This document shows positions 13,726-30,417 of a stretch of 40,153 bases of DNA, one piece after another. The notes beneath the pieces were generated by a model, which had not been told where the DNA came from, made no database searches, and saw only the letters and a list, made by a program, of their open reading frames with translations. The DNA comes from Borreliella garinii. Its GTDB lineage: Bacteria; Spirochaetota; Spirochaetia; JABEVK01. The position numbers were made by a program, and so were the translations under genes. Each line of letters opens with the position of its first letter. Within the stretch, counting starts at the first letter, position 1. The DNA lies in contig DYOB01000012.1 of the NCBI GenBank assembly GCA_020720765.1, positions 1 through 40,153 of the forward strand, read 5' to 3'.

Positions 13726-13766
13726 AAGAGGGAGCGCACCTGGCCAGGTTCACCGCTCCCCCTCTT
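13726..13766 (+). promoter_or_regulatory. leader hairpin of early mRNA
   Basis: AAGAGGGAGCG pairs with CGCTCCC-CC-TCTT (two bulged C) around an inner self-complementary ACCTGGCCAGGT. The structure lies between promoter and first start codon and leaves GGACGGAG free for ribosomes. No U-run follows, so it is not a simple terminator. It may stabilise or regulate the early mRNA. Confidence 0.5.
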
Positions 13767-13782
13767 AAAGGACGGAGACAGT

Positions 13783-14561: not shown

Positions 14562-14581
14562 GTATTGCCTTCTACATCGGA

Positions 14582-15157
14582 TTAATTGTTGGTGGGATTG
14601 CTGGGCATATCATCGGGCTTGTCCTTTTTAACTTTTTCTTGGACAACGGGGCTCTTATCGTCAAAAAAGTGAAGAAGTTTGTCTACAGCATTCGACCCAC
14701 TGTAACGATTTATCTTTTCCCGAAGCACTTTCGCAACCTTATTAAAAGATTCGGAGAAGTCATCAATGAACTTCCATGTTACCGAAGACGGCTTAGAAGT
14801 GCATGCCCACTTATGTTCTCTTATTACCTCGATCAAATCAGAGAAACTTCTGGAAACCTCACTATGAGCCCAAATCTGGGTCTCAAAAGAAATATCTGTG
14901 AACTTATACAAGAGAGCAATAAGAAATTTCTCAGCACCATCAGAGGTAATGAGTTCATGAAAGATTTTATGAGGCGCGAATTTCGCTACTACAACAGAAA
15001 TCTTCTCATGCGCGCCAAGCCTCTTTGGAATCAGGTCATGGACAAGTTCATACCTCCTGACTACCCGCTCTTTGTGGAATATGAAGATCTGTGTGAGAAC
15101 AGTTCCAAGCAAGGTAATACCACCCCCAATAAGCGTTCCAATCAAAGCCTCCGACAT
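14582..15157 (-). CDS. small membrane protein on opposite strand (probable moron)
   Basis: A 191-residue protein with an N-terminal membrane anchor (ALIGTLIGGGITLLGTVLTQ, about 4-23) and a charged helical cytoplasmic part. The ATG at 15157 has an ideal AGGAGG seven bases upstream. The frame is transcribed against the early operon. A competing rightward frame (14558-15208) covers it but is Arg-rich and lacks a plausible fold. Small anchored proteins like this are often superinfection-exclusion or lysogenic conversion genes. The role is inferred. Confidence 0.65.
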   Translation of the reverse strand: MSEALIGTLIGGGITLLGTVLTQIFIFHKERVVRRYELVHDLIPKRLGAHEKISVVVAKFAPHKIFHELITSDGAEKFLIALLYKFTDISFETQIWAHSEVSRSFSDLIEVIREHKWACTSKPSSVTWKFIDDFSESFNKVAKVLREKINRYSGSNAVDKLLHFFDDKSPVVQEKVKKDKPDDMPSNPTNN

Positions 15158-15200
15158 GCTGATACCTCCTCTTCTAGTGTAGTGGATCCGGAGGCCAACC

Positions 15201-17027
15201 ATGGCTGAGTTTCTCACCACTTCCGATCTAGCCAAGGTACTGAATGTCACACCAAGGGCGGTAGCGCTGCGGGCTGAGAAAGAAGGCTGGCCCTGGATCA
15301 AGGACGGACGCAAAAAGGGATTCTATCGGGAAGAGCTTCCGGTAGACATTCAGACCCATCTGGTTGACTTACTGGACGCCGACGCAGTAGGAGCCCTCGC
15401 CGAAGCACGGGTGTACAATATGGTGCGTAACGAAGACCGCCAAACTGCCATGTACCGAATGATGGTAGTGCAACACGCTAAACAAGCCCGTTCTAGAGGT
15501 ATGAACCTTACCACTTTTACAGCCTCCTATAATGCGGGAAGCTATCCTTTAGTTTTTAAAATTCTGGGAAAATTGAGCGCTAAAACTCTTTACCGCTGGA
15601 TACAAGGCGTCGACCACGACAATATCGCGGCCGTGGTTCCGAAGTGGAGCCTAAGAAGCAAAGAACGAGCCCGCGGGGTCCTGACCGAGATGGAAAAGGA
15701 AGCCTTGCGCGCCTGGTACCTGGATCAGCGCAAGCCTTCGGCGGCGAGTTGCTACCACAGACTGGTGAACGGCCCCCTCCAAAGTAAAGCCAGCTACGCC
15801 ACGGTGCTCCGCTATCTCACGGGGGGGTTGGACAAGAGCCTGGTGAGCCTCTACCGGGAAGGGCCTACAGCCTTCCGCGATAAGTACATGCCCACTGTGG
15901 TGCGCGACCCAACGGCTTATTCCCCCATGGAACAGGTGCAGTCCGACCACCACAACTTCGACTTCTTTATTAACGCCGGCAACGAACTACGACGCCCCTG
16001 GGTTACGGTCATGGTGGACTATTCTAGCGGCAAGGTTCTCAGCTGGATGCCCAGCATGGCGCCCAACAGCTCGGTGATCGGCATGGCCTTTTACCTCATG
16101 GTGACCAAATACAGCGCACCGGTGGAAATCCACACCGACAACGGTAAGGATTACCTCGCCAAGAGTTTGACGGGGACCGCGGTGAACTGGGGGCAGGAAG
16201 ACGAAGCAAAAGAGGCCGAGCTCCAAGGGCTCTACGCCTTGTGCGGTACCCGGCTCATTTTGGCGACGCCCTACAACGGCAAGTCAAAGGGTCGAACAGA
16301 GCGGATGTTTGGCTCCATCAAAGCGTACTTCGACAAACAGTTTCCTACCTACACCGGGTCAAACACCGTTACCAAGCCCGAGGAAGCCAAGCTCCTGCAC
16401 CGCCGTATCGGAAAGCTGGCCAAGCGCAAAGTGGAAGGTCTGGACTTTACCGTCTTCTCACAGGCCCTGGATGAGTTCTTTACCAACTGGAACGCCCAGT
16501 GGAGAGGCGAAGCCAAAGGCCGTTCAGGGATGACCGCCGACGAAGCCTTCACAAGCCGGGCCTCGGTAGCCAAGACGGTGAATATGGGGCTTCTCGAAAA
16601 CCACTTTGGAACGCCCTTCCTTCGAACGGTGGGCAAGTACGGAGTGGAGCTGGACCACGTGCATTACTACCACCGCTCCTTGCTGGAACACTACTTTGGA
16701 CAAAAGGTTCTGGTTCGGCGGCTCTGGCACCGGCCAGGCGAGGTAGTTGTTTCCGACCAAGAAGGCCGTTTGATTGCCCGAGCTATTGCAGGTCAGTTCA
16801 ACGAAACCGCCGACCTGGACAAGGTGATGCGTTTCAAGGCTCAGGAGATTCGCTATTTCACTAACAAGGCGCATCTTCTCAAAGCCCGCACCAGTGAGAA
16901 CGAAGGACCGTTCTTCCAACTGGCAGCCGGGGCTGAGCACCAGGCCCTTCCCGAAGAGAAGGAAGCCCCCAGGGCTTCATCCAAACCCAAACTGATCAGC
17001 CCCTTGGATGTGGGCTTAGAAGGATAA
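15201..17027 (+). CDS. transposase A (MuA-type DDE recombinase)
   Basis: A 608-residue transposase that pairs the phage ends and joins them to target DNA for integration and replicative transposition. An N-terminal winged-helix segment (about 1-60; LTTSDLAKVLNVTPRAVALR) binds enhancer or operator DNA. A further DNA-binding region runs about 80-230. The RNase H-like core carries Asp249 (QSDHHN), Asp313 (HTDNGKDY) and Glu367 (GRTERMF). The C-terminal Mu-type barrel and MuB-contact region follow (about 470-608). GGAGG precedes the ATG. It is followed four bases later by the MuB-type gene. Confidence 0.95.
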   Translation: MAEFLTTSDLAKVLNVTPRAVALRAEKEGWPWIKDGRKKGFYREELPVDIQTHLVDLLDADAVGALAEARVYNMVRNEDRQTAMYRMMVVQHAKQARSRGMNLTTFTASYNAGSYPLVFKILGKLSAKTLYRWIQGVDHDNIAAVVPKWSLRSKERARGVLTEMEKEALRAWYLDQRKPSAASCYHRLVNGPLQSKASYATVLRYLTGGLDKSLVSLYREGPTAFRDKYMPTVVRDPTAYSPMEQVQSDHHNFDFFINAGNELRRPWVTVMVDYSSGKVLSWMPSMAPNSSVIGMAFYLMVTKYSAPVEIHTDNGKDYLAKSLTGTAVNWGQEDEAKEAELQGLYALCGTRLILATPYNGKSKGRTERMFGSIKAYFDKQFPTYTGSNTVTKPEEAKLLHRRIGKLAKRKVEGLDFTVFSQALDEFFTNWNAQWRGEAKGRSGMTADEAFTSRASVAKTVNMGLLENHFGTPFLRTVGKYGVELDHVHYYHRSLLEHYFGQKVLVRRLWHRPGEVVVSDQEGRLIARAIAGQFNETADLDKVMRFKAQEIRYFTNKAHLLKARTSENEGPFFQLAAGAEHQALPEEKEAPRASSKPKLISPLDVGLEG

Positions 17028-17031
17028 TTTC

Positions 17032-17961
17032 ATGACCCATCAAAAGACCTTAAAACAGGAATTCACGGACTTCTTAAAGATTCACGCCATATCTCAGGCT
17101 AAAGCTGCCGAAGGCTGTGGTTACACCCCGGGTGTGCTCAGCGGGTGGATCTCGGATAGTTATAAAGGCGACACCTTTGCAGTCGAGGGCACTATACGCT
17201 CATGGTTGGAGAGAGAAGGGCGCCGACGCGCCCGGAAGACTATTCCCGTCGCCAATACTGAATCCTTTAACCGCATCACAAAGGCCATTACCCTGGCCCA
17301 TGAGAATAAAGACATCGCCCTGGTGGTGGGGGAAGCGGGCTTTGGCAAAACCACTGCTCTTAAAGCCTACGCCGAGGCCAACCCTCACAACGCCATTTAC
17401 ATCAACGTCAACAAGGCCATGACGAAGCAAACGCTGATCTACGAGATTGCCGCCGGTTTGGGCTTTGAGCGCAAAGGTAACTTCCCAGACGTTGCGATGC
17501 GCGTACACCAAAAGCTGGCAGAACAAGATATGGTGGTGATGGTCGACGAAGCCGACTACCTCAAAGACGACAGCCTGGAACTTCTGCGACAAATCGTCAA
17601 CGACGCGGGACAAAGCGGCCTGGTTCTTTCCGGGCTACCGCGCCTGGAATACCGGATCATCACCCTCAAGAACGACCATCAGCAGATAGCCAGCCGCATC
17701 GGCGTCTACGCCGCGGTAGCCGGACTCAGGGAACTAGACGCACAAAACATCGTGCTCTCAGCCTGGCCTAACTTGGTGCAAGACCGTGAGACTCAGAAAG
17801 CCTTCTGGAAGGGATGCGGCCCCTCGGCCCGGAGGCTTTCCAAACTTATAGAGAACGCCCACCGCACCTGCATGGCGAATAACCTGGAAATGCCCACGGC
17901 GGAAGTGGTCGCCGCCGCCGGAGCCCTCATACTCGATGACACCAAAAGGAGGATTGCATGA
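17032..17961 (+). CDS. transposition target-capture ATPase (MuB-type)
   Basis: A 309-residue AAA+ ATPase that coats target DNA and delivers it to the transposase, also giving target immunity. There is an N-terminal HTH (about 8-60), Walker A GEAGFGKTT (about 100-108) and Walker B VMVDEAD (about 169-175). Sensor-like LVLSGLPRLEYR follows and the C-terminus is helical and basic. The stop overlaps the next start (ATGA). Length matches the Mu B family. Confidence 0.9.
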   Translation: MTHQKTLKQEFTDFLKIHAISQAKAAEGCGYTPGVLSGWISDSYKGDTFAVEGTIRSWLEREGRRRARKTIPVANTESFNRITKAITLAHENKDIALVVGEAGFGKTTALKAYAEANPHNAIYINVNKAMTKQTLIYEIAAGLGFERKGNFPDVAMRVHQKLAEQDMVVMVDEADYLKDDSLELLRQIVNDAGQSGLVLSGLPRLEYRIITLKNDHQQIASRIGVYAAVAGLRELDAQNIVLSAWPNLVQDRETQKAFWKGCGPSARRLSKLIENAHRTCMANNLEMPTAEVVAAAGALILDDTKRRIA

Positions 17962-18656
17962 GTAAAACCGCACTGTCCAAGTCCACAGTGACCGAAATCA
18001 TTAACCTGCACGAGCAGCTGGGAGGGATGGTCAAGGCCACGGTGGCGCTGGTCTGGAGACTCGGGGAGAAACTCACCCTTGTCAAAGACGCACTCGACTT
18101 CGGGCATTTCGGAGAATGGATTGCAGCGGAAATGCCATTTTCACATCCCACGGCCAATAGGTACATGAAGGTCTATCAGAAGTTTCCCGCAGGGATTACC
18201 GAGGACATGAACCTCTCCGAAGCCTACCTGGAGTCCGGCGTCAAGCGCCTGGGCGCACCCGAGTTGGAACCTGTGAAGATCCCCAAGGAGTTCCGCCGGG
18301 ACGGTCCCGAAGCGGTCAAAGCGGTTCTTCGAATGCCGGTTAAATCGACCGCGCACCTCAAGAAATACCGGGTCGCCGTGGTCAATAACGCCATACAAGT
18401 GGTGCGCCCAGGTTGGCATGATCCACTTCTTGTCGGCGGCATCCATATCGACACTAACGAACCAGAGCTTCTCAGCGCGAAAGAAAAGCTGGAAGACACC
18501 ATTCAGGCCGCCATGGAACTCTTCCTCGAAGAGCGCGAACAGCTGGAAGATAACGGCATGATAGCCGAGCTGTTTGACCCCTCGCCGGTTGCGGAGGTAG
18601 AGCGCGTATTCAAGAAGAAAAAGAGTAAGCCAGTAGCACTCAAGGAGGACGTATGA
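17958..18656 (+). CDS. DUF3102-like early phage protein
   Basis: A 232-residue protein. Residues about 1-75 show the DUF3102-like pattern (IGEKL.LVK..L..G.FGEWI......S..TANRYM), seen in many phage and plasmid proteins of unknown role that may bind DNA or act in replication control. The C-terminus is acidic then basic. It is coupled by ATGA to the MuB-type gene. The family assignment is by pattern only. Confidence 0.6.
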   Translation: MSKTALSKSTVTEIINLHEQLGGMVKATVALVWRLGEKLTLVKDALDFGHFGEWIAAEMPFSHPTANRYMKVYQKFPAGITEDMNLSEAYLESGVKRLGAPELEPVKIPKEFRRDGPEAVKAVLRMPVKSTAHLKKYRVAVVNNAIQVVRPGWHDPLLVGGIHIDTNEPELLSAKEKLEDTIQAAMELFLEEREQLEDNGMIAELFDPSPVAEVERVFKKKKSKPVALKEDV

Positions 18657-18877
18657 GCACTTTAATTTTAGATTCTGAAGGGTACGCAGAACTCATGCAC
18701 AACCTGCGGACCATCGAGACCTTGGCAGTAGCTGGAAGAATTAACGGTAGCTCGTTGGAGGCTTGCGAGTCCATTACAAAGATCGCCGCAAATGCAAAAC
18801 TTCATGTTATGGATCATGTCTATATCAGGAATGAAGCAGAGAAAGATGAAAAGGAGGGCAATGATGTCGAGAATTAA
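18653..18877 (+). CDS. small early protein
   Basis: A 74-residue, largely helical acidic protein coupled by ATGA to the preceding gene, with AAGGAGG before it. The helix (MHNLRTIETLAVAGRI and on) could mediate dimerisation. I recognise no family. Small early genes between the transposition and Gam genes of Mu relatives often have accessory roles. Confidence 0.55.
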   Translation: MSTLILDSEGYAELMHNLRTIETLAVAGRINGSSLEACESITKIAANAKLHVMDHVYIRNEAEKDEKEGNDVEN

Positions 18878-19376
18878 GCCCCAGGTTGTGGGCAAGATTG
18901 GGAGTCTGGAGGAAGCGGACGCCACGCTTCGGGAAATTGGCGAATGTGTCTTGGAACTAGAAGTCATTGATTCCGAGATTGATCAGCAGATTGCCTCGCT
19001 CAAGGCCAGCGCCGCCGAGAAGGGTAAGTCATACAGGCAGAGAATAGATTCGCTTTCTGAGCGGCTGGGAGCTTATGCCGAGTACAACAAAGTCGAACTT
19101 TTTGCCGACCGCAAGAGCGTGGAGCTGACTTTCGGAACCTTCGGGTATCGCAAGTCTACAAGTATCCATGTAAAAAAGACTACCCTGGATCTTCTGCGTG
19201 ATCTTGGTCTTTACCAGTTCATCCGTATTAAGGAAGAGCCGGACAAGGAGGCTATGGCTGATATGTCAGAACCAGACCTTGCTAAGGTAGACGCCAAACG
19301 CGTAGAGAAAGATAGCTTTTTCTGTGAGCCCAAAAGGGATGCCGTGAACCAGGAGCTTTTAAAAAAAGGAGCATAA
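18864..19376 (+). CDS. gam: host-nuclease inhibitor Gam
   Basis: A 170-residue protein of the Mu Gam family, which binds DNA double-strand ends like eukaryotic Ku and shields them from exonucleases. The long coiled-coil helix (about 15-70, with IDSEIDQQIASLKASAAEKG) and the beta-rich KSVELTFGTFGYRKST segment are characteristic. Two ATGs stand in a row; the second (18864) has the better spacing from GGAGG. Position after MuB agrees with Mu. Confidence 0.85.
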   Translation: MSRIKPQVVGKIGSLEEADATLREIGECVLELEVIDSEIDQQIASLKASAAEKGKSYRQRIDSLSERLGAYAEYNKVELFADRKSVELTFGTFGYRKSTSIHVKKTTLDLLRDLGLYQFIRIKEEPDKEAMADMSEPDLAKVDAKRVEKDSFFCEPKRDAVNQELLKKGA

Positions 19377-19413
19377 ACCGCCTTTCTGGACGTTAGGCGG
19401 TAGGAGGAGAGTC

Positions 19414-19848
19414 ATGTTGATAAATCGAAATCAGAAACTAGCCTTAATACATCTCGCTAAAAAGAAACTTGGCTTAAGCGATGACCAATACCGTGCTGTC
19501 CTTGTGGCAGTCACAGGCGTGGATTCATCAGCTCAGCTACAAAGCGAGCGGCAATTCGATGATCTCATGACTCGATTCCTTTCTTTAGGCTTTAGCACGA
19601 GAAGGCAAAATAAACGCCCCACTTGGTCGGACTTCTGGCGGTGCACCTCCTCCCAGCGCGCTCAGATTGAAGTACTATGGAAACGCGTTGCCCGCTCTCC
19701 AACTCCTGAAAGTCTTCGAAAGTTCGTGCAGCGCATGAGCGGAATTGATGCACCTAACTGGCTCGACAAAACAGGTGCTACCAAGGTTATTCTAGCCCTC
19801 AAGAAGCTCGCCATTCAGGCGGGAAAGGATCCGGAGAATGCTACTTAA
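19414..19848 (+). CDS. GemA/gp16-type regulatory protein
   Basis: A 144-residue protein with the GemA/gp16 hallmark start (NQKLALIHLAKKKLGLSDDQYRAVL) and the C-terminal WLDKTGATKVILALKKL. In Mu the family alters host supercoiling and gene expression and decouples replication. GTAGGAGG precedes the ATG. The stop overlaps the next start by eleven bases. Confidence 0.8.
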   Translation: MLINRNQKLALIHLAKKKLGLSDDQYRAVLVAVTGVDSSAQLQSERQFDDLMTRFLSLGFSTRRQNKRPTWSDFWRCTSSQRAQIEVLWKRVARSPTPESLRKFVQRMSGIDAPNWLDKTGATKVILALKKLAIQAGKDPENAT

Positions 19849-20098
19849 ACTCTATAGCCCTGCTCAGGCCGCCAAGCGCCTGGGAGAACCCCGTAGATCT
19901 GTTTATTACTATTTAATGATGGGGCGCTTGGAAGCTTGGAAGGTGCGCCACCTTTGGAGGATACCCGAAAGCTCTTTATCAGCAATTAAAGAGTACGCAG
20001 AACTCCTGCCATTACCCATAAAGGAAGAAAACCATGATAAGACCATCAACCAAAATTCAACTCAAAACCAACTTGCCTTTGATTTTGACTGTGCCTGA
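19838..20098 (+). CDS. MerR/excisionase-like HTH protein, first
   Basis: An 86-residue protein with an N-terminal winged HTH (SPAQAAKRLGEPRRSVYYYLMMGRLEAWKVRHLWRIP), the pattern of HTH_17/excisionase domains. The rest is a linker. It overlaps the GemA gene. Possible roles are late-gene activation (the Mor place in Mu) or architectural DNA bending. Confidence 0.6.
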   Translation: MLLKLYSPAQAAKRLGEPRRSVYYYLMMGRLEAWKVRHLWRIPESSLSAIKEYAELLPLPIKEENHDKTINQNSTQNQLAFDFDCA

Positions 20099-20243
20099 AG
20101 TTGCGGGTATTTTATGCGTGTCACAAAAGACAGTGAAACGCATGGTGCGCGATGGCCAAATCGATTCAATTACCGAAGAAAAAGAAACTCAAATTTTACG
20201 TGATGATTTGATTTTCTACTTGTCAAAACACAGCAATTTATAA
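20034..20243 (+). CDS. excisionase-like HTH protein, second
   Basis: A 69-residue protein with an HTH_17 pattern (LTVPEVAGILCVSQKTVKRMVRDGQI), overlapping the previous gene by 65 bases in another frame. AAAGGAAG before the ATG supports its own translation. A second winged-helix protein right before the lysis genes suggests a late regulator, but no Mor/C motif is seen. Confidence 0.65.
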   Translation: MIRPSTKIQLKTNLPLILTVPEVAGILCVSQKTVKRMVRDGQIDSITEEKETQILRDDLIFYLSKHSNL

Positions 20244-20291
20244 AGGCCCAAATTACAGTTTTAATAGGGGGGTTAATGCTAGCTTGATGCC

Positions 20292-20933
20292 ATGAGGTAC
20301 TTGCTAAATAACCCCTATCATACTCAACGAAACAACAAGATCGCTCCGGCATCCACGTGCAACGTCACTGCCATGATTATGGCCCTACGCTCCAGTGGGG
20401 TAGAGTTTGTTGTTCCCGTGGACACTCAGCCAGAGGATCACTTAGCCGAACTTTTAAATTCAGAAACAGTAAAGACCAAACAACTTAAGGAATTTCCTAC
20501 CCTTGGCACCCGACCAGCAAGAGAAATACACGATCTACTATCGTGGGGGACCAATTATCTGCTGTGCCACAGGGTTGTCAGTCGCTTCACCCTTAAAGCC
20601 GACCTTCGACTTCTGTTGTGGAGAATTGCGGCACTCCGTAGCGGTGCGGTAGTGGCCGGACGTTTTACAACTTATGGACACATGGTGGCCCTGGTCGGAT
20701 TCGAATATGAGGGCGAAATACCGGAGACCTGGTTAGAAACGAATCTCGACCTGGTCAAGTCCGTCATCATCGACGACCCTTGGGGAAATATACACTCTGA
20801 CTACCGTGACCATAACGGCAACAACGTTGAACTGACCTTGGCAGCCTTTAACCACTACACGCGTGAGTACGACCACGTCGGGAAAAAGTGGGCGCACATT
20901 ATCGACCCTACAGGGAGGTTTGAAGGATTATGA
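20292..20933 (+). CDS. C39-like cysteine peptidase, probable endolysin
   Basis: A 213-residue protein with the C39-type catalytic arrangement: Cys in APASTCNVTAMIMAL (about residue 23), His in TYGHMVALVGFE, and Asp in IIDDPWGN. Such domains cut peptides, and in phage lysis cassettes they act as peptidoglycan endopeptidases. It is followed directly by a two-helix holin-like gene, which supports the lysis role. No signal peptide is visible, so release would need the holin. The start lacks a strong ribosome site. Confidence 0.7.
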   Translation: MRYLLNNPYHTQRNNKIAPASTCNVTAMIMALRSSGVEFVVPVDTQPEDHLAELLNSETVKTKQLKEFPTLGTRPAREIHDLLSWGTNYLLCHRVVSRFTLKADLRLLLWRIAALRSGAVVAGRFTTYGHMVALVGFEYEGEIPETWLETNLDLVKSVIIDDPWGNIHSDYRDHNGNNVELTLAAFNHYTREYDHVGKKWAHIIDPTGRFEGL

Positions 20934-21226
20934 GCGGTGAAAGCGGCTTTAAAATAGAAGATTACCAGGATGGGAAAGAACCTATAACAGATTCAAAACC
21001 CTTGTCCATTTGGCAGGATGGAACAGGCGCTTACTCATTGATGCGCAAGTTGGTACACAGGGTTGTTCATATTGGACTTCTGATTGCCCTTGCGGGCACT
21101 GTGGCCATGTTCATGGGTAACCCACAAGCCTCTGCCATTACCATTACAGGCGCCGGAATGGTTACAGCTGGTCTAGGGATGAAGGGTGTTCAAGCCTTTG
21201 CGGAGGCTCAAAGTGGTGCTCTCTAA
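20930..21226 (+). CDS. putative holin
   Basis: A 98-residue protein with two predicted transmembrane helices (about 45-65 and 68-88) after a polar N-terminus, typical of small holins that time lysis. It is coupled by ATGA to the peptidase gene and overlaps the next gene. Assignment rests on topology and place. Confidence 0.6.
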   Translation: MSGESGFKIEDYQDGKEPITDSKPLSIWQDGTGAYSLMRKLVHRVVHIGLLIALAGTVAMFMGNPQASAITITGAGMVTAGLGMKGVQAFAEAQSGAL

Positions 21227-21530
21227 TATCTGGAAAAAAATCAAAGATTTCTTCATAGGGATCGTACTTGGGCTTTTAGCTTTCGTCTTGATATTTAAGA
21301 AGGACAACATACAGCCAATCTCAGAAGAAAGAAAAGAGGAAAAACGAGATGAATTACAAAACACTCCTGCTCGTGAGCTTGTTGACCGTTCCCATGATCC
21401 CGTGCGCCTTCGCGCAAGAATCGAACAGATCGACGCCGAGTATCGAGAATCCGTACGGGATCAGACTCGACGCCGACTACTCGGGGCCGGTAGTGCTGGA
21501 ACTCCTTCAAATGATGGAGGAGGAAGCTAG
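21213..21530 (+). CDS. putative inner-membrane spanin (Rz-like)
   Basis: A 105-residue protein with one N-terminal membrane helix (about 15-30) and a long charged helical periplasmic part, as in Rz i-spanins, which with an outer partner fuse the two membranes at lysis. The GTG at 21213 is preceded by GGAGG at six bases; the in-frame GTG at 21186 is less supported. It overlaps the holin-like gene and hosts another frame inside its 3' half, resembling the nested Rz/Rz1 layout. Confidence 0.55.
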   Translation: MVLSNIWKKIKDFFIGIVLGLLAFVLIFKKDNIQPISEERKEEKRDELQNTPARELVDRSHDPVRLRARIEQIDAEYRESVRDQTRRRLLGAGSAGTPSNDGGGS

Positions 21531-21729
21531 TGAAGCGATCTCGAAAGCGTTCGAAGAAGGGTACAAGGAAGGTCTACTCGCGGAAGCCCCCGAGAGGGTT
21601 TTTTGGCAGACTGAAGCAGAGAACTTACGAGCCGAATTTTTTCCCAAATCCTGGGCCGGACCCACTGCTATTGCTTGCTTTAGCCTCGGCGTTCTTTCGA
21701 CGCTCCTTGCTCAGAACCTTGGGAGGTAG
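21349..21729 (+). CDS. exported lysis-cassette protein nested over the spanin-like gene
   Basis: A 126-residue protein in a different frame, overlapping the Rz-like gene by 182 bases. It has an N-terminal signal peptide ending CAFAQ (the Cys could also be a loose lipobox) and a C-terminal hydrophobic helix (about 105-122). Position suggests an outer-membrane spanin partner, but the C-terminal helix is unusual for Rz1, so another envelope role is possible. Confidence 0.5.
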   Translation: MNYKTLLLVSLLTVPMIPCAFAQESNRSTPSIENPYGIRLDADYSGPVVLELLQMMEEEASEAISKAFEEGYKEGLLAEAPERVFWQTEAENLRAEFFPKSWAGPTAIACFSLGVLSTLLAQNLGR

Positions 21730-22089
21730 ATGATGGACCAGCTTGTTCTCATGCTCTTGCAATACGGCTCAGCCCCAGCGCTTCTCGTTCTTGCTTTTGC
21801 TATCGGACTCATGGGAAAAAGGCTCTCCGACTTTGATCGTAAGAGTGATCGTCGTATTCAGGAAATGCTTGCCCAAGTAAAGGAAGAAATTTCCGCTCTT
21901 GAGCGTTCTTTAGATTCTAAGGTAGCAAAAATGGATGAGGCGGTTGATGAGCTCGCTAGGCGGGTTACTGTTATTGAAAGGGACTATCTGCCAAGACAAG
22001 AGCATTACCGAGATTTCTCGGGGTGGAGAGAAGAAATACACCGGGTGGTTGACCGCCTCGATCGTCTGGCAGAAAGGGAAAAAAAATGA
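21730..22089 (+). CDS. membrane coiled-coil protein (Mu gp25/DUF2730-like)
   Basis: A 119-residue protein with one N-terminal transmembrane helix (about 8-28) followed by a long coiled coil (about 35-118). This matches Mu gp25-type proteins located between lysis and terminase genes. GGGAGG precedes two adjacent ATGs; the second (21733) has better spacing. The function is unknown in the family. Confidence 0.65.
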   Translation: MMDQLVLMLLQYGSAPALLVLAFAIGLMGKRLSDFDRKSDRRIQEMLAQVKEEISALERSLDSKVAKMDEAVDELARRVTVIERDYLPRQEHYRDFSGWREEIHRVVDRLDRLAEREKK

Positions 22090-22379
22090 AGCAAACAACG
22101 CTACGTGGTAAAATTCTGGAATTTCTTAAGAACATTTACCCTGAGGGAGCTGACGAACGAACAGTGATAGGAATCTTTTATGATTACCACAAGGTTACCG
22201 ACATAGAACAGTCACTTGCTTACCTTGCGGACAAATGTTTGGCTTCAGTAAAAGACTTGCCTCACCCTTATAAGAGTGGTGAGCGAGTGAAAATCTACCG
22301 TATCTCACCCACAGGTATCGACCTTATGGAAGGTACTATTACAGACGCTGGTGTAAACATCTGCCCGGATGTGGACTAA
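22086..22379 (+). CDS. winged-HTH protein (Mu gp26-like)
   Basis: A 97-residue protein with an ArsR-like winged-helix pattern (LRGKILEFLKNIYPEGADERTVIG, then HKVTDIEQSLAYLADKCL, then a wing ending RISPTGIDLMEG). It occupies the gp26 place just before the small terminase. ATGA and one-base overlaps bind it into the packaging cluster. Probably helps terminase or regulates late genes. Confidence 0.65.
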   Translation: MKQTTLRGKILEFLKNIYPEGADERTVIGIFYDYHKVTDIEQSLAYLADKCLASVKDLPHPYKSGERVKIYRISPTGIDLMEGTITDAGVNICPDVD

Positions 22380-22900
22380 TGGGCCGCCGCAGTAACGCCG
22401 ACCTGCTCGGCATCGTAGAGCAGATCATGGACCTGTATAACTCCCAGAAATTGACGATTAATCAAATCGTCGAGGAGTTACAACATAAGGGGTTTGCCGT
22501 TTCTCGGAGCGGTATTCAGCGGACAGTTCGCTCTTATAAGGAGACGGCGAGGCTTTATAAAAAAGCCATGGAAGAATCCAAAATACTGATCGACATGGTG
22601 CGCTCAGACCCTAACACCGATGTGAACGAAGCGAGCCTTTCAATTCTGAGTCGAAACTACTTTGAGTTTGTCCAGAGTATGGATGGTTTGCAATTCAAAG
22701 ATTCCGCCGAAGCCGCTCATGCGCTCAAGGCCTTGGTGCAAAGCCAGACGCAAATTGCCAAGCTCAGACTCAACTTCCAAAACGGTGTGGCAGCGGCGAA
22801 AAAGTCAGTCATGGAGACCATTCGGAAAGAGCTCCAAAACCATCCCGATTTACTCGATCGTCTAACAGCTGTCGTTGGCGGCTTGGAGGTCAGTACTTGA
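22379..22900 (+). CDS. small terminase subunit (Mu gp27/DUF3486 family)
   Basis: A 173-residue protein beginning MGRRSNADLLGIVEQIMDLY, matching the DUF3486/gp27 family, which recognises phage DNA for packaging. An HTH (about 25-50) is followed by a long helical oligomerisation region (about 95-165). It overlaps the large terminase start by four bases. Confidence 0.85.
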   Translation: MGRRSNADLLGIVEQIMDLYNSQKLTINQIVEELQHKGFAVSRSGIQRTVRSYKETARLYKKAMEESKILIDMVRSDPNTDVNEASLSILSRNYFEFVQSMDGLQFKDSAEAAHALKALVQSQTQIAKLRLNFQNGVAAAKKSVMETIRKELQNHPDLLDRLTAVVGGLEVST

Positions 22901-24441
22901 ATCTTTTAGGGGAACTTGTCGGCGGCCAAGGGGCTGTCGACAAGAAGAAAGAATCCGAAGCCAAGAAAGACCGTGTTACCCGCGCCCAGCGGGATTTTGG
23001 CTTTTTTTGCGAGACTTATCTCAGCGATTATTTCTTCACAGACGCCGCAGAGTACCAACGCATTCTTTTCGACGTTGCTGATAGTCAGGCTCTTTCCCCA
23101 CAAACCATCAACCAGCTCAAAGTCTTTGTTCAACCCAAGTACCAGGACCTTTTGCAGCCGAATGAAACACTAGCCGGTGCCATGTTCATTGAGCCACGTG
23201 AACACGGCAAGACCGTCCGGTGGTCGTTTGCTTATCCCCTTTGGCGTCTGCTATGCAACAAGAGCAGGTATGTCCTTCTCATTGGTGCCGCTGGCGCAAC
23301 CGCATCGGAAAACCTCATTAATATCCGCACCGAACTTGAAGAGAACGAAGCCTTGATGGAGGACTTCGGCGACATGAAAGGTGATGGCCGCTGGAGTGAT
23401 AACCGCATCGAGCTCAAGAACGGTACCTGTTTGCAAGCCAAAGGTTCAGGCATGTCTATGCGCGGTACCCGCTACCGCCAATACCGCCCCGACCTGATTA
23501 TTCTGGATGACATCCTTAAAGACGACGCGGTAGATTCTCCCACCCAGCGGAGCAAGATTCATCGTTGGTTAAAGCGCGTGGTTTTCAACCTGGGAAAGAC
23601 TGCGTTCCTAGTCTGGGTGAATACCATTTTTCACAACGACGATCCTATTAGCCGTCTAATGGAGGAACTGAGAAGAGGTACGCTGAAGCGGTGGATTGCG
23701 GTACGCCTATCCTGTTGGAAGCCCGATGATTCTCCTTTATGGCCCGAAAACTGGTCACGGGAAATTCTTGAAGAGAAGCGTACTACACTGGGTTCCGATG
23801 TCTTTTCCACCGAATACGAAAACGAACCACTCTCCGATGAAGATCGCATCATCAAAGAAGAGTGGATCAGAAGAAACCAGTACACCTCCGACGAACGCCC
23901 GGCGCTCAACCTGCTTCGGAAATTCAACGGTGTGGATCCCGCAACAGGCGCACACGACGGCACCGCTATGGTTTCCATTGGGGTTGATCAAGTTGGAACA
24001 ATCTGGATTCTCGACCAATGGAGTAAGCCCTGCAGCGAAAACGAAACAGTTCTCCAACTCAGTACCAAGCACAAAGTTTTCCAATATGAACAAATTGCTT
24101 GGGAAGGAGTGAGCTTCCAGAAAATCTACGCGCGTTTCGTAGGAATGTTAGCCGCTCAGCAGGGTGTCTATCTCCCGATTAGAACAGTCGAAGCCGGAGG
24201 AGATTCTAAGGCGACACGTCTTCGTGCAATATCACCACTTATTGAAAACGGACTCATCCGGTTCCGCAAAACAGGTGATGAAGAACTTATCGATCAACTT
24301 TGCCAGTTTCCAAAAGCCAAATTTGACGACCTTTGCGACGCCTTGGCTTACGCTGTGAAAATTGCTGGTTCAGGTCCTTCGGCGCCTTTTATTTTCCAGG
24401 CTGGAAAACGGCAATCAAAGTCCATTTTAAGGGGGTTTTAA
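22897..24441 (+). CDS. large terminase subunit (Mu gp28-like)
   Basis: A 514-residue packaging motor. The ATPase domain has a variant Walker A (EPREHGKT, about 99-106) and Walker B LIILDD (about 200-205). The C-terminal RNase H-like nuclease shows Asp in FNGVDPATGAHDG and the late DDLCDALAYAV motif. It cuts and pumps DNA into heads. The start is TTG in a TTGA overlap with the small subunit stop. Length and motifs match Mu-type terminases, which take host DNA flanking the inserted phage. Confidence 0.9.
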   Translation: MNLLGELVGGQGAVDKKKESEAKKDRVTRAQRDFGFFCETYLSDYFFTDAAEYQRILFDVADSQALSPQTINQLKVFVQPKYQDLLQPNETLAGAMFIEPREHGKTVRWSFAYPLWRLLCNKSRYVLLIGAAGATASENLINIRTELEENEALMEDFGDMKGDGRWSDNRIELKNGTCLQAKGSGMSMRGTRYRQYRPDLIILDDILKDDAVDSPTQRSKIHRWLKRVVFNLGKTAFLVWVNTIFHNDDPISRLMEELRRGTLKRWIAVRLSCWKPDDSPLWPENWSREILEEKRTTLGSDVFSTEYENEPLSDEDRIIKEEWIRRNQYTSDERPALNLLRKFNGVDPATGAHDGTAMVSIGVDQVGTIWILDQWSKPCSENETVLQLSTKHKVFQYEQIAWEGVSFQKIYARFVGMLAAQQGVYLPIRTVEAGGDSKATRLRAISPLIENGLIRFRKTGDEELIDQLCQFPKAKFDDLCDALAYAVKIAGSGPSAPFIFQAGKRQSKSILRGF

Positions 24442-25680
24442 ATGTCCAAGAAAAAGATTCAAAATGATGTCCTTGTCAAAAGGCTCATCCTTGCAGACAA
24501 TGCAAGTTCCTTGATGGCCTACCTGCCTAACCCCGACGAAGTACTTACCAACTCTGGGGAGGCTCTCTCCATCTACCGAGATATGAAGGTGGACGGTAGG
24601 GTAAAATCGCTTTTGAAATTAGCCCGCGGACAAATAACCAAATGGCCGATCCACCTGGAACAAGGCGAAGCCCTTCCCAAGGTGGAAGAATTTGTTAGAA
24701 CAGCCATATCCCAGGTGCCTCTTGAAAAAGTGGTTCGCCGCCTTCTCCCTGCCGTAGACTTTGGCTTTTCTGTGGCCGAGGTTGTGTGGCAGAACAAGGA
24801 CGGCTGGTGGTACCCCGAAGATGTAATCGGTAAAAAGCCTGACCGCTTCCTTTTTGATAAAGACGGACTTTTGTCCCTCAAAGATAAGAACGACCTTATA
24901 CCTCTTTCGGGGTATGATTATAAATTTCTCCTCTTCCGACATGATAAGGAGCCAGAAAACCCTTACGGTACCAGTCTCCTCAAATCGGCTTACTGGCCCT
25001 GGAAATTCAAGAAGGCCGGTCTTGGCTTCTGGCTGACCGCAACAGAGAAGTTCGCCGTGCCGACAATTCTTGCGCTTTTCGATTCTCAAGAAGGTGAAGA
25101 AAAGGTCAAAGCGCGAGCCCAAGCCCTGGGTGAAATGCTCAGCTCCATCAACTCCGGATCCACGGCATCCGTTGCCAACGTCAAGGATATTAGGACCATC
25201 ACCACGGCGGGAGACCTGGCCGACTTTAGGGCGCTCATCGACTGGTGTGATACGCAAATTGCTTATGCTCTTACGGGGCAATCACTCGCCACCGGTGAGG
25301 CGGAGTTCGGTTCGCGGGCGCAAAGTGAAATCCACCAGGACACCATGGAAGACACGGCAAGGGCCGCCATTACTGACCTCACCGAGGTTTTGCAGCGCTT
25401 TATCGATTGGATTGTAGAACTGAACTTCGGGCCGGATATCGCTTCACCTCAAATCTTCTTTGACACCGCCAATCACGCGAGTTGGGACATGGTGCGTGAT
25501 GCTCTGGATCGCGGATTCCCGGTATCAAAAAGCGCTCTCTATGACCGCTACGGTCTACCACGGCCGAAGGACGAAGAAGATGCTTTCCTATCTCCCAACC
25601 CCCAACAGCCAGCGGGTCAAGACCTCTTTATGGCCGACGAACCGGTAAAAAAAAACGGCTTTCGGAAGAGGTTGTTCTAG
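24442..25680 (+). CDS. portal protein (Mu gp29/DUF935-like), short zero-frame form
   Basis: A 412-residue protein with DUF935 portal features (LRKLVRGQITKWP-like start, GFSVAEVVWQNKDGW, and LTGQSLATGEAEFGSRAQSEIHQD). It forms the portal ring at the packaging vertex. It is about 100 residues shorter than Mu gp29. The missing C-terminal helical part appears encoded in the -1 frame beyond an A9 run, joined to the MuF frame. The zero frame ends in a basic tail after the slippery run. Confidence 0.85.
   Translation: MSKKKIQNDVLVKRLILADNASSLMAYLPNPDEVLTNSGEALSIYRDMKVDGRVKSLLKLARGQITKWPIHLEQGEALPKVEEFVRTAISQVPLEKVVRRLLPAVDFGFSVAEVVWQNKDGWWYPEDVIGKKPDRFLFDKDGLLSLKDKNDLIPLSGYDYKFLLFRHDKEPENPYGTSLLKSAYWPWKFKKAGLGFWLTATEKFAVPTILALFDSQEGEEKVKARAQALGEMLSSINSGSTASVANVKDIRTITTAGDLADFRALIDWCDTQIAYALTGQSLATGEAEFGSRAQSEIHQDTMEDTARAAITDLTEVLQRFIDWIVELNFGPDIASPQIFFDTANHASWDMVRDALDRGFPVSKSALYDRYGLPRPKDEEDAFLSPNPQQPAGQDLFMADEPVKKNGFRKRLF
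25647..25656 (+). promoter_or_regulatory. candidate -1 frameshift site A_AAA_AAC in portal gene
   Basis: Nine A then C. In the portal frame the ribosome reads GTA AAA AAA AAC, which contains the canonical heptamer A_AAA_AAC at 25650-25656. A -1 slip continues as CGG CTT TCG GAA GAG into the MuF frame, open throughout. A second A9C run exists in the chaperone gene. A one-base undercall in a homopolymer (true A10) is the alternative. Confidence 0.6.
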
Positions 25681-25742
25681 CCCAGGAAAAGGCAAAACTT
25701 AAAGAGCTTGATGGCATCGCCAGCCGCTACCAGGATAGGATT

Positions 25743-27098
25743 ATGGAACGGCTTCGGGATAAAGTTCGAACCTGGTTCAACTCTTTTAAGGGATTGCCAA
25801 CAAAGGAAGAGCTTGAACAGACAACGCCCTACAACAATGACATTGACTTGTTCCGAGAAACAGAGGAGGTTTTCCTTCTTTCGGCACTCACAGGAATGGA
25901 CCATGCATCCACCGATTTAGAGTTAGCCGATGAGGATATCAGCCCGGAAGGTATTTCGTTCGAAGAGGCTTCAACGTTCCTAAAAACCAGGCTTCCTCTC
26001 ACTTCAAAAGAATGGTATGACCTTGAACCAAAAGTGAGATTTCGGGCGTTCACCGTTGCCGCTCTCGGAGAAGTAGATGCCATTGATAAAGTAAAGCAAC
26101 GCCTCCTCTCTACCATCGAGAAAGGAGGAACGCTGGAGCAGTTCTGGAACGAACAAAAGTTGTTGGAGAACGGCGGCCTAGCCGGAAGGAATCCTATGTA
26201 TTGGGAAACGGTCTATCGAACCAATATGCAGACTTCCTACAACGCCGGCCGTGCTATGGAGTTCCAGCGGACACAACCTGAATACCTTGAATTCATAGGC
26301 GTCGAAGATGAACGGCAAACTGATATATGTTCCAAACGTAGCGGGATCATTCTCCCTGCCTCGCATGCGTTTTGGAAGTCGAACTGGCCACCGCTCCACT
26401 TCAATTGTCGCTCTACTGTTCGACCAGTCCCCCAAGAAGAGATTGACTACATCAAGCAAACGAACCCGACATGGGAACGGACACCGGACAGAAATCTGCC
26501 CATCGGCGAGGATAAAAAAGGCTTCGGCGAGAACCCGCTGGACTCGGGCAGTTTCTTCAAAATCACGCCTGGAATGGCTGATCGGATTGAAGGAAATCCT
26601 CTTTTAAAGATGGATTTATTAGAAGTAGCACAATCTTCTGGCGTTGTTTCCGACCCGATTCAATCAATTCGCCTCATCCAACAAAACGCCGCAGTCAGGA
26701 TAAATAACCAAATGATTCAGGACGTTATAGAGGAGAGAAAAATTATTAAAGCCGAATTAGCTCCTCTGATTGGTAAGAAGGTTTTTGTTCCTTCATTGTC
26801 TGAAAGCGTAGAGATTAGTAAAAAAGGTATTGACCACGCCTTTGCTTTCTCTGCTAGCAAAGTAAAAATTAACGCACTTCTGGATTTGGAAAACATACTT
26901 AGAAAATCCATTTTAGCTGGTAACCCTGTCGAATATTCCAAAGGTGGTGGAATGTATAAGGAGGTCATTTACACAAGAGTAGTTATCGAAACAGGAACTC
27001 AACCGAGAATTCTCAATTTCACAATTTTCAGAAGGCAGGATAATTCCCTGGTTCTTTATGATGTTGCTGAACGGAAAATTGTGAAGGGAAAAAAATAA
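25743..27098 (+). CDS. portal C-terminal part plus MuF minor head protein with C-terminal nuclease-like domain
   Basis: A 451-residue frame (longer if entered by frameshift). Residues about 1-65 look like the C-terminal helices of a portal. About 75-260 is a MuF/gp30 domain (SKEWYDLEPKVRFRAFTVA, then the DERQTDICSKRSG and PPLHFNCRSTVRPV signature). Residues about 330-451 resemble the barnase/EndoU-type (BECR) toxin domains often fused to MuF: KKGIDHAFAFSASKVKINAL followed by a long strand region ending DNSLVLYDVA. DNA is visibly richer in A/T there. The ATG at 25743 has AGGA at seven bases, so independent start is also possible. No immunity gene follows. Confidence 0.8.
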   Translation: MERLRDKVRTWFNSFKGLPTKEELEQTTPYNNDIDLFRETEEVFLLSALTGMDHASTDLELADEDISPEGISFEEASTFLKTRLPLTSKEWYDLEPKVRFRAFTVAALGEVDAIDKVKQRLLSTIEKGGTLEQFWNEQKLLENGGLAGRNPMYWETVYRTNMQTSYNAGRAMEFQRTQPEYLEFIGVEDERQTDICSKRSGIILPASHAFWKSNWPPLHFNCRSTVRPVPQEEIDYIKQTNPTWERTPDRNLPIGEDKKGFGENPLDSGSFFKITPGMADRIEGNPLLKMDLLEVAQSSGVVSDPIQSIRLIQQNAAVRINNQMIQDVIEERKIIKAELAPLIGKKVFVPSLSESVEISKKGIDHAFAFSASKVKINALLDLENILRKSILAGNPVEYSKGGGMYKEVIYTRVVIETGTQPRILNFTIFRRQDNSLVLYDVAERKIVKGKK

Positions 27099-27116
27099 GG
27101 CCCCAATAAAGGGGCC
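27099..27116 (+). terminator. hairpin after the late right operon
   Basis: GGCCCC-AATAAA-GGGGCC directly follows the MuF stop. The six-pair GC stem lacks a strong U-run (AAAGGG follows), so termination would be weak or factor-assisted, or the hairpin may stabilise the 3' end. Confidence 0.55.
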
Positions 27117-27296
27117 AAAGGGTCGGTAACTATTCCTGGCTTACAACTCCAGTAGTTATCCAACCTTCTTATATTATAGGACGAACTTCAGAAAACATCA
27201 AGTTTGAAGGCTGTTTTTAGGAGGTTTTTCAGGCTTTTGAAGGCTCTTTAACCGGAAAGGAAATTCACTTCCAGATCGCTTCCAGTTATCTTGCAC

Positions 27297-27542
27297 GATT
27301 TTGAGAAATTCAACGTTTTTCGCGTGCTCGTAATGACTATCTAAGTTGTTATTTATAAATAGTTTGTTCTGGATTTAAACGCATTAAACGTGTTTTTCGA
27401 ACTTTACGTGATTTTGACCGGTTCTCGTGTTTTCCATGGAAATGCAGCTCAACTTTACATCATGCTTTTTGACCTTCTATTCTCTTTAATTGACTATCTT
27501 ATATAGATTTATTCGTATTTTCTGCTTTTTACTGATTTCTCA
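27297..27542. other. putative right-end transposase binding sites
   Basis: Read from the end inward (minus strand), the core RGAAAAYACG-like motif occurs at 27523-27514 (AGAAAATACG), 27435-27426 (GGAAAACACG), 27398-27389 (GAAAAACACG) and, in a variant, 27322-27314 (CGAAAAACG). Three are followed by an A/T-rich AAATC or AAAATC at similar distance. Mu ends have such repeated sites with CGAAA cores. CA at 27541-27542 or 27560-27561 would give the usual TG...CA terminus. The rest of the 27117-27296 gap holds only two copies of TTTGAAGGCT and no gene. Confidence 0.6.
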
Positions 27543-30284
27543 TTATAAGTGATAGATTACAATGGAGAACCGGGTGACAGGCTTGCGACTTATCCACTGG
27601 GGTTCCTTTACCACCACCTCCGGATAAATATCAGACATAACCCCAATAACCGCCGACCATTTTTTCAGTGTGGCCAACTGTTCTTCGAATTCTTCGCGAA
27701 TTTTGTCGGAGACAATAAGTGGAAGTTCACCCTGGGTTATTTCCTTGGTTTTTTTTCTCACTGGAGGAAACCTTTTACTCATGGCGGTTTCTTCGAAAAG
27801 TTGGCCCATAGGTTCGCGGTCAACACGGATGGAGGGCAGAATATTCTTGACCATTTCTTCCAATCTTTTTCTTGGGAAGGGAAGGACTGGTAGGATTTCT
27901 TTCCAGTCGTGGTGTTCTAATTCCCTCAGGCCGGATTTTCTTTGTACATGTTGGAGAATGGACCTGTCTATAAGCGCGATGGCCACTGCGTCGACAGCGT
28001 GATGTCGGTGATCGGAGCGATTTTTTCTAGCGGGATAATCTTTATCGTCGTCGTATTTGCGTCTGGTAAGAAGTGCATTAAGACCATGAGTTGAACGGAA
28101 TGCAAAGGTAATGTTTCCGATGGAGTTCCAAATTTTATTCCGGGGACAAACGACACTCAAATAGCGTGTAGCCGCTTTTGCGATGTAATGGTTGTCTGTC
28201 AGCTGGCGCTGAACGAACTCTTCCGATTCATCAAAGTCCTCCATGGCCTCCTTTGTAAATTTACCTCTCTTTGAGACATTATACCGTTCTATACCCGGGT
28301 AGGTTCGTTTGACTCTGTCGGAAATTGATTCCCAGGAGTAACCAGCCGGGCTACTGTGAAATGCCTCCCATGGGCTACGCTTGCCCTTGTAAGCATTAGC
28401 AGTTTTATAACTGACAGTGAGATTACTCATTCCATCCAAAAGTGTTCTACTGTAGGGGAGTATATGTTCGATCTCCACTTCGTCAGAGAAAAGCTGCCTT
28501 AGACTGATGGGTTTTCCAGAATAAAGGCAGCATCTTGCGGCCTGGTCCTTACCCAATTCTTCCCATAATTTGTACTTTTTTAAGTCCCAGCTGCTGGGGT
28601 GTGCAATACCAATGTGACGTAGTTCTTCCTTGATCCTTTGGTTCAATTTTTGGTTGGCCGCCTGTTGTTTTGATGTTTCATCTTTCTGTTTTTTTGTTTG
28701 TTTAAGATCGCGACCCATTTCCAGAACGACCTCATTCGGGTTTCCGAAACGCTGAATGAGTTTATTTACAAGCAAGCGCAATTGATTTAGGGCAATATGT
28801 ACCGTTGGATTCGTAATCCTTCCAAAGTGCTCGATAGCCCTGACCATGTAGGAAGTATCATTTTTCTCTGGGGCAATTGTTTTTTTATCGGTACGTCGTA
28901 CTGCCTGGTCCCACAAGATTTCTCCATAATATGGAAGATGCTTACCTAAGCCATCTCCATAAGCGCTTGTTAAAAGTGAATGGTGAAAACCGGCAGATTC
29001 AACAGCTGTGCTGTAAATTTGTCCCTGGCGGAGGTAATCAAGTACTTTTTGAGCAAAGGAAATCGAAACAGAGGCGGTTTGAGGGTTGGCTATTGAAAAG
29101 TCAAGCATTTTCCCCATTTGTTCTTCACTTAAAATGAGTGTTTGAAATAAGCCTCGAATGATATCATCATCGTTTTCACTTGCCACCGCTTCAACTATTT
29201 GGTCTTGAAGTTTGTCCGATAATTCATCCCACTGGGGCCCTACGAAATCAGGTTGGCGGAACTTTTCACTGATCCAGTCTCCCTGTAAGCCGTCGGCTCT
29301 CTTGGGATCATTTTCCAGAGAAAAGGTCTGGTTAGACGAAATACCAAGTTTCTTTTTGATTTCGGGCCAACCTAAAGTTCTTTCTCGCCCCTTACCCTTC
29401 CATTTAGCCGCTTCCTTGCCTTCGAGTAATCTATACAATAAGTCCTTTTGCGTTTGTGTGAGCTCTTCTTTCCCTGTCTCCGTATAGATTTTCAAAGCGT
29501 TTACTTCTTGGTAAATTCGGAAGCGTTGCAGTGTCGGGAGAAAATTCCAGGCACGAGGTTCTCCCGTAAAAAGACACAGACCGCGAATCTGAGGCTTTAG
29601 AGGGCGCTGGAAATAGGTTTTGTTTCGCAGTTCTTCCCATGGGAGAGTGGGATGGAACTTAACCTGTTCTTTTCGAATAGTTTCCCATTCTTCCAGATAC
29701 ATTTCACGAAGAGGAAAAATATTGGTGAGTTCAGGTCGAAACCGGAGACCTTGCCCAACTGTCTTACTCGTTTCCCATAAATATTCTCCGAGAGTTCTGT
29801 AGCGGGTCTTATCTTCTAATTTTTCCTTCAGAGATTTCATTTTCTCTTTGAGTTGGCTTAGGTTCTTGTCTTCCTCGGAATCGCTTTTCCTATTAGAAAG
29901 AAAACCTCTTCTGCCGGACAGGTGAAGCAAAACTCTTCCCAATTCAAAGGGTGGGAGTTTTTCAGTTAGAGCTTTTACCCGAAGGTTGTAAGGATTCATT
30001 TTTTTTATTTCTTGCTGAGTTGTAGAATCTGCGGGAAAAAAACCAGAGCGTATCAGTAAGTTCTTCACGACTTTCATACGGCGTTGAGTCCTATACCTTT
30101 GTCGGCGCATCAGGCGGGCTTGTCGCCTGGCCTGGTTCAAACTCTCTCCAGACTTCGGGTCACGTCCATCATGAAATATTCGGACACCGAGGTCCATCAA
30201 ATCGAAAGGAACTCCGCTCTTTGTTTCCAAGGCAGCCCAACCAATCGAGTTTGTACCCATATCTAAACCCAAACGCCATTCCAT
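27543..30284 (-). CDS. cas9: Cas9 endonuclease, type II-C-like, C-terminus probably truncated
   Basis: A 913-residue RNA-guided nuclease. RuvC-I Asp8 (LDMGTNSIGWA), an Arg-rich bridge helix (about 52-80), a helical recognition lobe (about 85-480), RuvC-II Glu522 (VVLEMGRD), HNH with His607 (IEHILPYS) and Asn630, and RuvC-III His762/Asp765 (HHAVDAV) are all present. Only about 150 residues follow RuvC-III, against about 200-250 in type II-C proteins, so most of the PAM-interacting domain seems missing. The MGQLFEET motif of the WED/PI entry is present at about 826. The stop lies at the prophage end. AAGGGAG precedes the ATG. No cas1, cas2 or array is nearby. Confidence 0.9.
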   Translation of the reverse strand: MEWRLGLDMGTNSIGWAALETKSGVPFDLMDLGVRIFHDGRDPKSGESLNQARRQARLMRRQRYRTQRRMKVVKNLLIRSGFFPADSTTQQEIKKMNPYNLRVKALTEKLPPFELGRVLLHLSGRRGFLSNRKSDSEEDKNLSQLKEKMKSLKEKLEDKTRYRTLGEYLWETSKTVGQGLRFRPELTNIFPLREMYLEEWETIRKEQVKFHPTLPWEELRNKTYFQRPLKPQIRGLCLFTGEPRAWNFLPTLQRFRIYQEVNALKIYTETGKEELTQTQKDLLYRLLEGKEAAKWKGKGRERTLGWPEIKKKLGISSNQTFSLENDPKRADGLQGDWISEKFRQPDFVGPQWDELSDKLQDQIVEAVASENDDDIIRGLFQTLILSEEQMGKMLDFSIANPQTASVSISFAQKVLDYLRQGQIYSTAVESAGFHHSLLTSAYGDGLGKHLPYYGEILWDQAVRRTDKKTIAPEKNDTSYMVRAIEHFGRITNPTVHIALNQLRLLVNKLIQRFGNPNEVVLEMGRDLKQTKKQKDETSKQQAANQKLNQRIKEELRHIGIAHPSSWDLKKYKLWEELGKDQAARCCLYSGKPISLRQLFSDEVEIEHILPYSRTLLDGMSNLTVSYKTANAYKGKRSPWEAFHSSPAGYSWESISDRVKRTYPGIERYNVSKRGKFTKEAMEDFDESEEFVQRQLTDNHYIAKAATRYLSVVCPRNKIWNSIGNITFAFRSTHGLNALLTRRKYDDDKDYPARKNRSDHRHHAVDAVAIALIDRSILQHVQRKSGLRELEHHDWKEILPVLPFPRKRLEEMVKNILPSIRVDREPMGQLFEETAMSKRFPPVRKKTKEITQGELPLIVSDKIREEFEEQLATLKKWSAVIGVMSDIYPEVVVKEPQWISRKPVTRFSIVIYHL

Positions 30285-30294
30285 GTTTACTCCC

Positions 30295-30323
30295 TTGACA
30301 GATGGAAAAAGTAGCGTTATAGT
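30295..30323 (+). promoter_or_regulatory. tracrRNA promoter
   Basis: TTGACA (30295-30300), 17-base spacer, TATAGT (30318-30323), pointing away from cas9. Expected start is at 30329-30331. The -35 box overlaps the ribosome site of cas9 on the other strand, so cas9 transcripts must start farther upstream and run antisense through this promoter. Confidence 0.85.
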
Positions 30324-30329
30324 TTTCTT

Positions 30330-30417
30330 AACACTAATGCTTTATCGCTCTGCCCGTTAACAAGACGCCCCTCGGGGTCGTCGTCAGATTTAAAGAGGGG
30401 TTCGCCCCTCTTTTTTT
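30330..30417 (+). ncRNA. putative tracrRNA
   Basis: A gene-free stretch of about 88 bases between a near-consensus promoter and a strong terminator, directly 5' of and divergent from cas9. The 5' part is A/T-rich and unstructured, suitable as anti-repeat. It is followed by GACGCCC-CTCG-GGG-T-CGTC (one bulge) at about 30364-30382 and the terminator stem at 30392-30413. Size, two 3' hairpins and place are as expected for a tracrRNA. With no array in the window, the repeat pairing cannot be tested. Confidence 0.7.
30392..30417 (+). terminator. rho-independent terminator of tracrRNA
   Basis: AAAGAGGGG-TTCG-CCCCTCTTT, a nine-pair stem closed by a stable UUCG tetraloop, continuing into seven U in all. 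It is strong in the plus direction only. Confidence 0.9.

What the first reader, a model, noticed from the sequence alone, without database searches (positions are those of the whole stretch)
27297..27620. Mu-like prophage end falls at or inside the 3' end of cas9, probably cutting off the PAM-interacting domain
Seen: cas9 stops at 27543, directly beside transposase-site-like repeats; after RuvC-III (His762/Asp765) only about 150 residues remain, whereas known type II-C proteins have about 200-250. The last coded residues (after KPVTRFSI) may be phage-encoded if the phage ends at 27561 (terminal CA). Inference: the prophage inserted into cas9, inactivating immunity, and the rest of cas9 with cas1, cas2 and the array lies past the unseen left end.
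Basis: partly seen in the sequence, partly recalled or inferred. Interest (0 to 1): 0.8.

Follow-up and report, generated by a model that had tools for sequence, protein, structure and literature searches.

The report
Mu-like prophage truncates a bacterium's Cas9
A virus that inserts itself almost anywhere in bacterial DNA has landed inside the gene for the CRISPR immune enzyme Cas9, cutting off about its last fifth (the part expected to recognise targets) and so probably disarming the cell's immunity; the event is clear, but it is a new example of a known kind.

Summary
Cas9 (27543-30284, minus strand, 913 aa) is truncated: every relative with sequence past this point, including one from the same genus at 51% identity, aligns up to about residue 905 and then continues. 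Seven relatives carry 198-221 further residues; the window has 6. The break lies at a TG...CA phage end at 27561: the last five codons (VIYHL) and the stop are phage DNA, and Ile908 is a hybrid codon. The phage is a Mu-like transposable prophage. A relative present in three copies in one complete genome shows the same two-arm gene order, the same position for this end, TG...CA termini, and 5-bp target duplications in two of three copies, so 27561 is the expected phage end. In Cas9 relatives cas1, cas2 and (in one) an array follow cas9. In this 527-contig assembly I found no Cas1, no Cas9 C-terminus and no array. The contig stops inside the phage, so the left junction, the predicted ATGGA duplication and the fate of cas1-cas2-array cannot be tested; adjacent deletion remains possible. 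Insertion sequences in cas genes, and CRISPR loss through a Mu-like phage, are already published. Interest is moderate.

The parts
27562..30284 (-). 5' part of cas9: 907 complete codons and two bases of codon 908; RuvC and HNH catalytic residues retained, C-terminal 200-220 residues missing
   Evidence: TIGR01865 537 bits covering 2-860 of 1070; alignment with relatives; invariant residues
27543..27561 (-). phage-encoded end of the Cas9 reading frame: last base of hybrid Ile codon 908, then VIYHL and stop; also the outermost 19 bp of the phage (TGTAATCTATCACTTATAA)
   Evidence: sequence and translation; unique in the window
27562..27566 (+). predicted 5-bp target site ATGGA, expected to be repeated at the unseen left end
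   Evidence: inferred from the 5-bp duplications CCGTT and TGGAC of a related prophage; the second copy is not in the assembly
27099..27561 (.). non-coding phage end with putative transposase-binding repeats
   Evidence: repeats; equivalent position in G314 prophages
13630..27098 (+). right arm of the Mu-like prophage: transposase A (15201-17027), ATPase B (17032-17961), Gam (18792-19376), Gp27 (22379-22900), terminase (22897-24441), portal (24442-25680), gpF (25743-27098)
   Evidence: Pfam and PHROGs
1..13619 (-). left arm of the prophage: repressor (12783-13619), methyltransferase (8734-9522), protease (7742-8683), decoration (7380-7730), capsid (6387-7370), neck (5400-5999), tape measure (220-3153); continues beyond the contig start
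   Evidence: PHROGs; IMG/VR record extends about 1.2 kb further left
30295..30415 (+). predicted tracrRNA unit upstream of cas9: promoter TTGACA-N17-TATAGT (30295-30323), anti-repeat, nexus hairpin, terminator (30392-30415)
   Evidence: promoter and terminator scan; fold; similar unit upstream of cas9 in L013; no Rfam match

Best explanation
A Mu-like transposable phage integrated into codon 908 of a chromosomal type II cas9. Its end on the terminase-portal-F side joins the first 907 codons of cas9. Translation reads five phage codons and stops, so the product lacks the last 200-220 residues, the C-terminal region that in known Cas9s carries PAM recognition. Shown: the truncation, the phage identity, a TG...CA end at the break, and that this end is where this phage group is expected to end. 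Inferred: that immunity is lost, that an ATGGA duplication exists at the other end, and that the rest of the locus (cas9 3' part, cas1, cas2, array) originally followed. The open 908-codon frame with its catalytic residues suggests a recent insertion.
For: Homology to all longer Cas9 relatives stops at about residue 905. TG...CA end at 27561. Same two-arm gene order in prophages of G314 (three copies), G029 and G250, with the mapped end in the equivalent position and 5-bp duplications in two of three G314 copies. Genes on the other side of cas9 look chromosomal: metallo-beta-lactamase/flavodoxin protein, XPB-like helicase, adenylate cyclase, PEP carboxylase. cas1 and cas2 follow cas9 directly in relatives. 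ATGGA read as TCCAT fits the NYSRN target preference known for Mu (own knowledge; weak, since one in eight random sites would).
Against: The left junction was not seen. The independent IMG/VR record stops at the end of gene F and does not show the junction. The end sequence is only loosely similar to the ends of the G314 prophage.
Confidence: 0.93

Rival explanations
1. Insertion plus adjacent deletion: phage transposition removed the cas9 3' end, cas1, cas2 and the array, as DMS3 did around the CRISPR locus of P. aeruginosa PA14, so no matching duplication would exist at the far end.
For: No Cas1, no Cas9 C-terminus and no array with the predicted repeat in an assembly rated 97.8% complete; published precedent (PMC11406979); one G314 copy lacks matching duplications.
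Against: The phage tail known from the IMG/VR record is missing from the assembly as well, so the DNA left of the break was simply lost from it; absence says little.
Confidence: 0.25
2. Assembly or binning artefact: a phage contig was wrongly joined to a cas9 contig.
For: Fragmented assembly (527 contigs); junction not confirmed in a second assembly.
Against: The join falls exactly at a TG...CA phage end and in the position expected from related prophages; no repeat shared between phage end and cas9 was found that could cause a false join; the Cas9 C-terminus is not elsewhere in the assembly.
Confidence: 0.04
3. A naturally short Cas9 that merely ends beside a phage.
For: A complete ORF with a stop codon; compact Cas9s exist (own knowledge).
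Against: The stop codon and last five codons are phage DNA; all relatives with sequence past this point, the same-genus one included, continue; the motif KPHPAAK, invariant in the C-termini of five relatives, is absent.
Confidence: 0.02

Closest known systems
Insertion sequences in cas genes (Nat Commun 2023, PMC10359306)
   Same: A mobile element inserted in a cas gene, predicted to end immunity
   Different: Here the element is a whole transposable phage and the target is a chromosomal type II cas9; loss of function not tested
DMS3-mediated CRISPR loss in P. aeruginosa PA14 (mSystems 2024, PMC11406979)
   Same: A Mu-like phage alters the CRISPR-Cas locus by transposition
   Different: There a type I-F locus, large deletions in evolved lysogens under self-targeting; here a single visible junction in type II cas9 and no known spacer
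TG1-group transposable prophages of Leptospira (Int J Mol Sci 2021, PMC8705779)
   Different: Resemblance of gene order from the paper's text only; sequences were not compared
Type II locus of Spirochaetes MAG G041 (JAJSAL010000008.1, L047)
   Same: Homologous Cas9 (about 41-43% identical)
   Different: There cas9 is full length and is followed by cas1, cas2 and an array of at least 15 repeats; here cas9 is cut and those parts were not found

Membership tests
Mu-like transposable phage | DDE transposase A with adjacent ATPase B | tested here: met
   DDE_2 and Mu-transpos_C in 15201-17027, AAA ATPase in 17032-17961
Mu-like transposable phage | Mu-type head and packaging genes and Gam | tested here: met
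   Portal_Mu, Phage_Mu_F, Phage_Mu_Gp27; Gam and terminase
Mu-like transposable phage | TG...CA ends with 5-bp target duplication | tested here: inconclusive
   One end seen (27561, TG...CA); the other end is outside the assembly. Both features found in the G314 relative, duplications in two of three copies
Type II Cas9 | RuvC and HNH nuclease domains with catalytic residues | tested here: met
   HNH_4, RuvC_III; TIGR01865 537 bits; D8, E522, H607, H762, D765 invariant
Type II Cas9 | C-terminal PAM-interacting domain | tested here: not met
   Profile match stops at 860 of 1070; 6 residues where seven relatives have 198-221
Type II CRISPR-Cas locus | cas1, cas2 and array | tested here: inconclusive
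   No Cas1 and no array with the predicted repeat in the assembly, but the DNA left of the prophage is missing; Cas2 was not searched on its own
Type II CRISPR-Cas locus | tracrRNA | tested here: inconclusive
   Promoter, hairpin and terminator at 30295-30415 resembling the L013 unit; no Rfam match; no array to pair with
Type II CRISPR-Cas locus | Interference activity lost in this strain | not testable with these tools
   Needs an experiment

The most novel reading that the evidence does not exclude
The insertion was selected: the array carried a spacer against this phage and the lysogen survived only because the phage landed in cas9; or the truncated Cas9, perhaps still able to bind guide RNA, acts as a decoy that keeps immunity off.
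Probability: 0.1. Interest if true: 0.6.

Novelty: new member of a known kind. Interest (0 to 1): 0.35.

Why it matters
It is a natural, base-level example of a transposable phage disrupting a type II CRISPR effector outside the usual model bacteria. If the left side is recovered, its spacers would show whether this phage was a target, which bears on whether temperate phages drive CRISPR loss in nature.

Tried and rejected
A rearranged prophage: the capsid and tail genes are inverted relative to many IMG/VR relatives, where F is followed by protease and capsid genes on the same strand, but prophages in G314, G029 and G250 share the window's order, so no rearrangement is needed. C275 was considered as the missing left flank, but it is a different, non-Mu prophage that shares only the tail-side segment. 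Rfam gave no tracrRNA match. The profile of the missing C-terminus found no solved Cas9, so the missing part was not mapped onto a structure. The AlphaFold model of a full-length relative was poor (mean pLDDT 56.8) and was not used. Paper searches for a prophage inside cas9 gave no exact precedent; the library is partial.

Full report
Observation. The minus-strand ORF 30284-27543 is a type II Cas9 (TIGR01865, 537 bits; HNH_4 and RuvC_III). It ends RKPVTRFSI-VIYHL-stop. Relatives were found in the same genus (G001, 51%), in a Spirochaetes MAG (G041, 43%) and in G023 (38%), and in further MAGs. In the alignment 198-221 residues follow query residue 907 in L013, L047, L048, L052, L054, L055 and L056; the window has six. 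L051 and L053 are cut by their contig ends, and the L013 frame also runs to its contig end. TIGR01865 is matched to position 860 of 1070 in the window and to 1011-1017 in two relatives. The catalytic residues are retained.

The break. On the minus strand phage DNA starts at 27561 with TGTAATCTATCACTTATAA. Its first T completes codon 908 (Ile), followed by GTA ATC TAT CAC TTA TAA. The last 150 bp of the phage hold three of the four copies in the whole window of a motif chosen by eye, ATSAYKTAWA; this is suggestive only.

The phage. Pfam and PHROGs identify transposase A, ATPase B, Gam, Gp27, terminase, portal and gpF on the plus strand, and repressor, methyltransferase, protease, decoration, capsid, neck and tape measure on the minus strand. 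An IMG/VR record is 99.8% identical over the phage and extends about 1.2 kb left of the window; it ends exactly at the stop codon of gene F, so it confirms the gene order but not the junction.

Calibration of the end. G314, a single-contig genome, holds three near-identical copies of a related prophage (transposase 32% identical) with the same two-arm order. Their shared boundaries give TGTAAC at the tail side and ...ATGACA at the other. Two copies have 5-bp duplications, CCGTT and TGGAC; the third has none. The second boundary lies about 435 bp past the last matched gene there, against 463 bp past gene F in the window. The same order occurs in G029 and G250, and in the part of the element that the shorter G203 contig covers. 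It matches what is described for the TG1 group of Leptospira prophages (PMC8705779).

What is missing. In G041 and G023 cas1 and cas2 follow cas9 within a few bases, and an array of at least 15 repeats follows in G041. In the window's genome there is no Cas1, no match to the Cas9 C-terminus and no array with the repeat predicted from the anti-repeat. The same C-terminus query does find distant relatives in G023 and G041. Absence is weak evidence of deletion, because the phage tail known from IMG/VR is missing too. The contig starts within a segment shared with C275, another prophage: 95% identical over 223 bp, about 83% over 381 bp. That shared segment plausibly caused the break.

Mechanism. 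Mu-like phages integrate with low target specificity and leave 5-bp duplications (PMC11406979). Insertion at codon 908 yields a Cas9 that keeps its nuclease domains and loses its C-terminal region. Loss of the PAM-interacting domain abolishes target recognition in studied Cas9s (own knowledge), so interference is probably lost. Where exactly the wedge and PAM-interacting domains begin in this protein was not mapped, since neither sequence profiles nor the predicted model helped. The upstream part of the locus and a predicted tracrRNA remain.

Known or new. Insertion sequences in cas genes are documented (PMC10359306), and the Mu-like phage DMS3 removed CRISPR regions by transposition in PA14 (PMC11406979). 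I found no published prophage within cas9 in the partial library searched. I class this as a new member of a known kind.

Noticed in passing
window 1-381 and L060 (G000:C275) 1-381: Both contigs begin at the same point in a shared phage tail segment (95% identical over 223 bp, 83% over 381 bp), although C275 is a different, non-Mu prophage with its own capsid, portal and a Sak4-like gene: a tail module shared between unrelated phages in one genome.
   Followed up: partly
L023/L025 (G001:C74), about 154-168 and 1267-1281: Two isolated copies of a repeat-like sequence matching the tracrRNA anti-repeat, 1.1 kb apart, next to a separate array with repeats of another type (CGCGGGGGTGTTTC).
   Followed up: no
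L026 (G000:C314): A contig of the window's genome encodes a cysteine-rich protein that looks eukaryotic, possibly contamination of the assembly.
   Followed up: no
window 30608-31123 (+): An AbiEii/DUF6036-like nucleotidyltransferase gene sits next to cas9 and the predicted tracrRNA; no PADLOC match.
   Followed up: no
G314 copy near 3066357 (L081-L084): One of three prophage copies lacks matching target duplications (AACGG against CTGAC), as if recombination between copies or an adjacent deletion had occurred.
   Followed up: no
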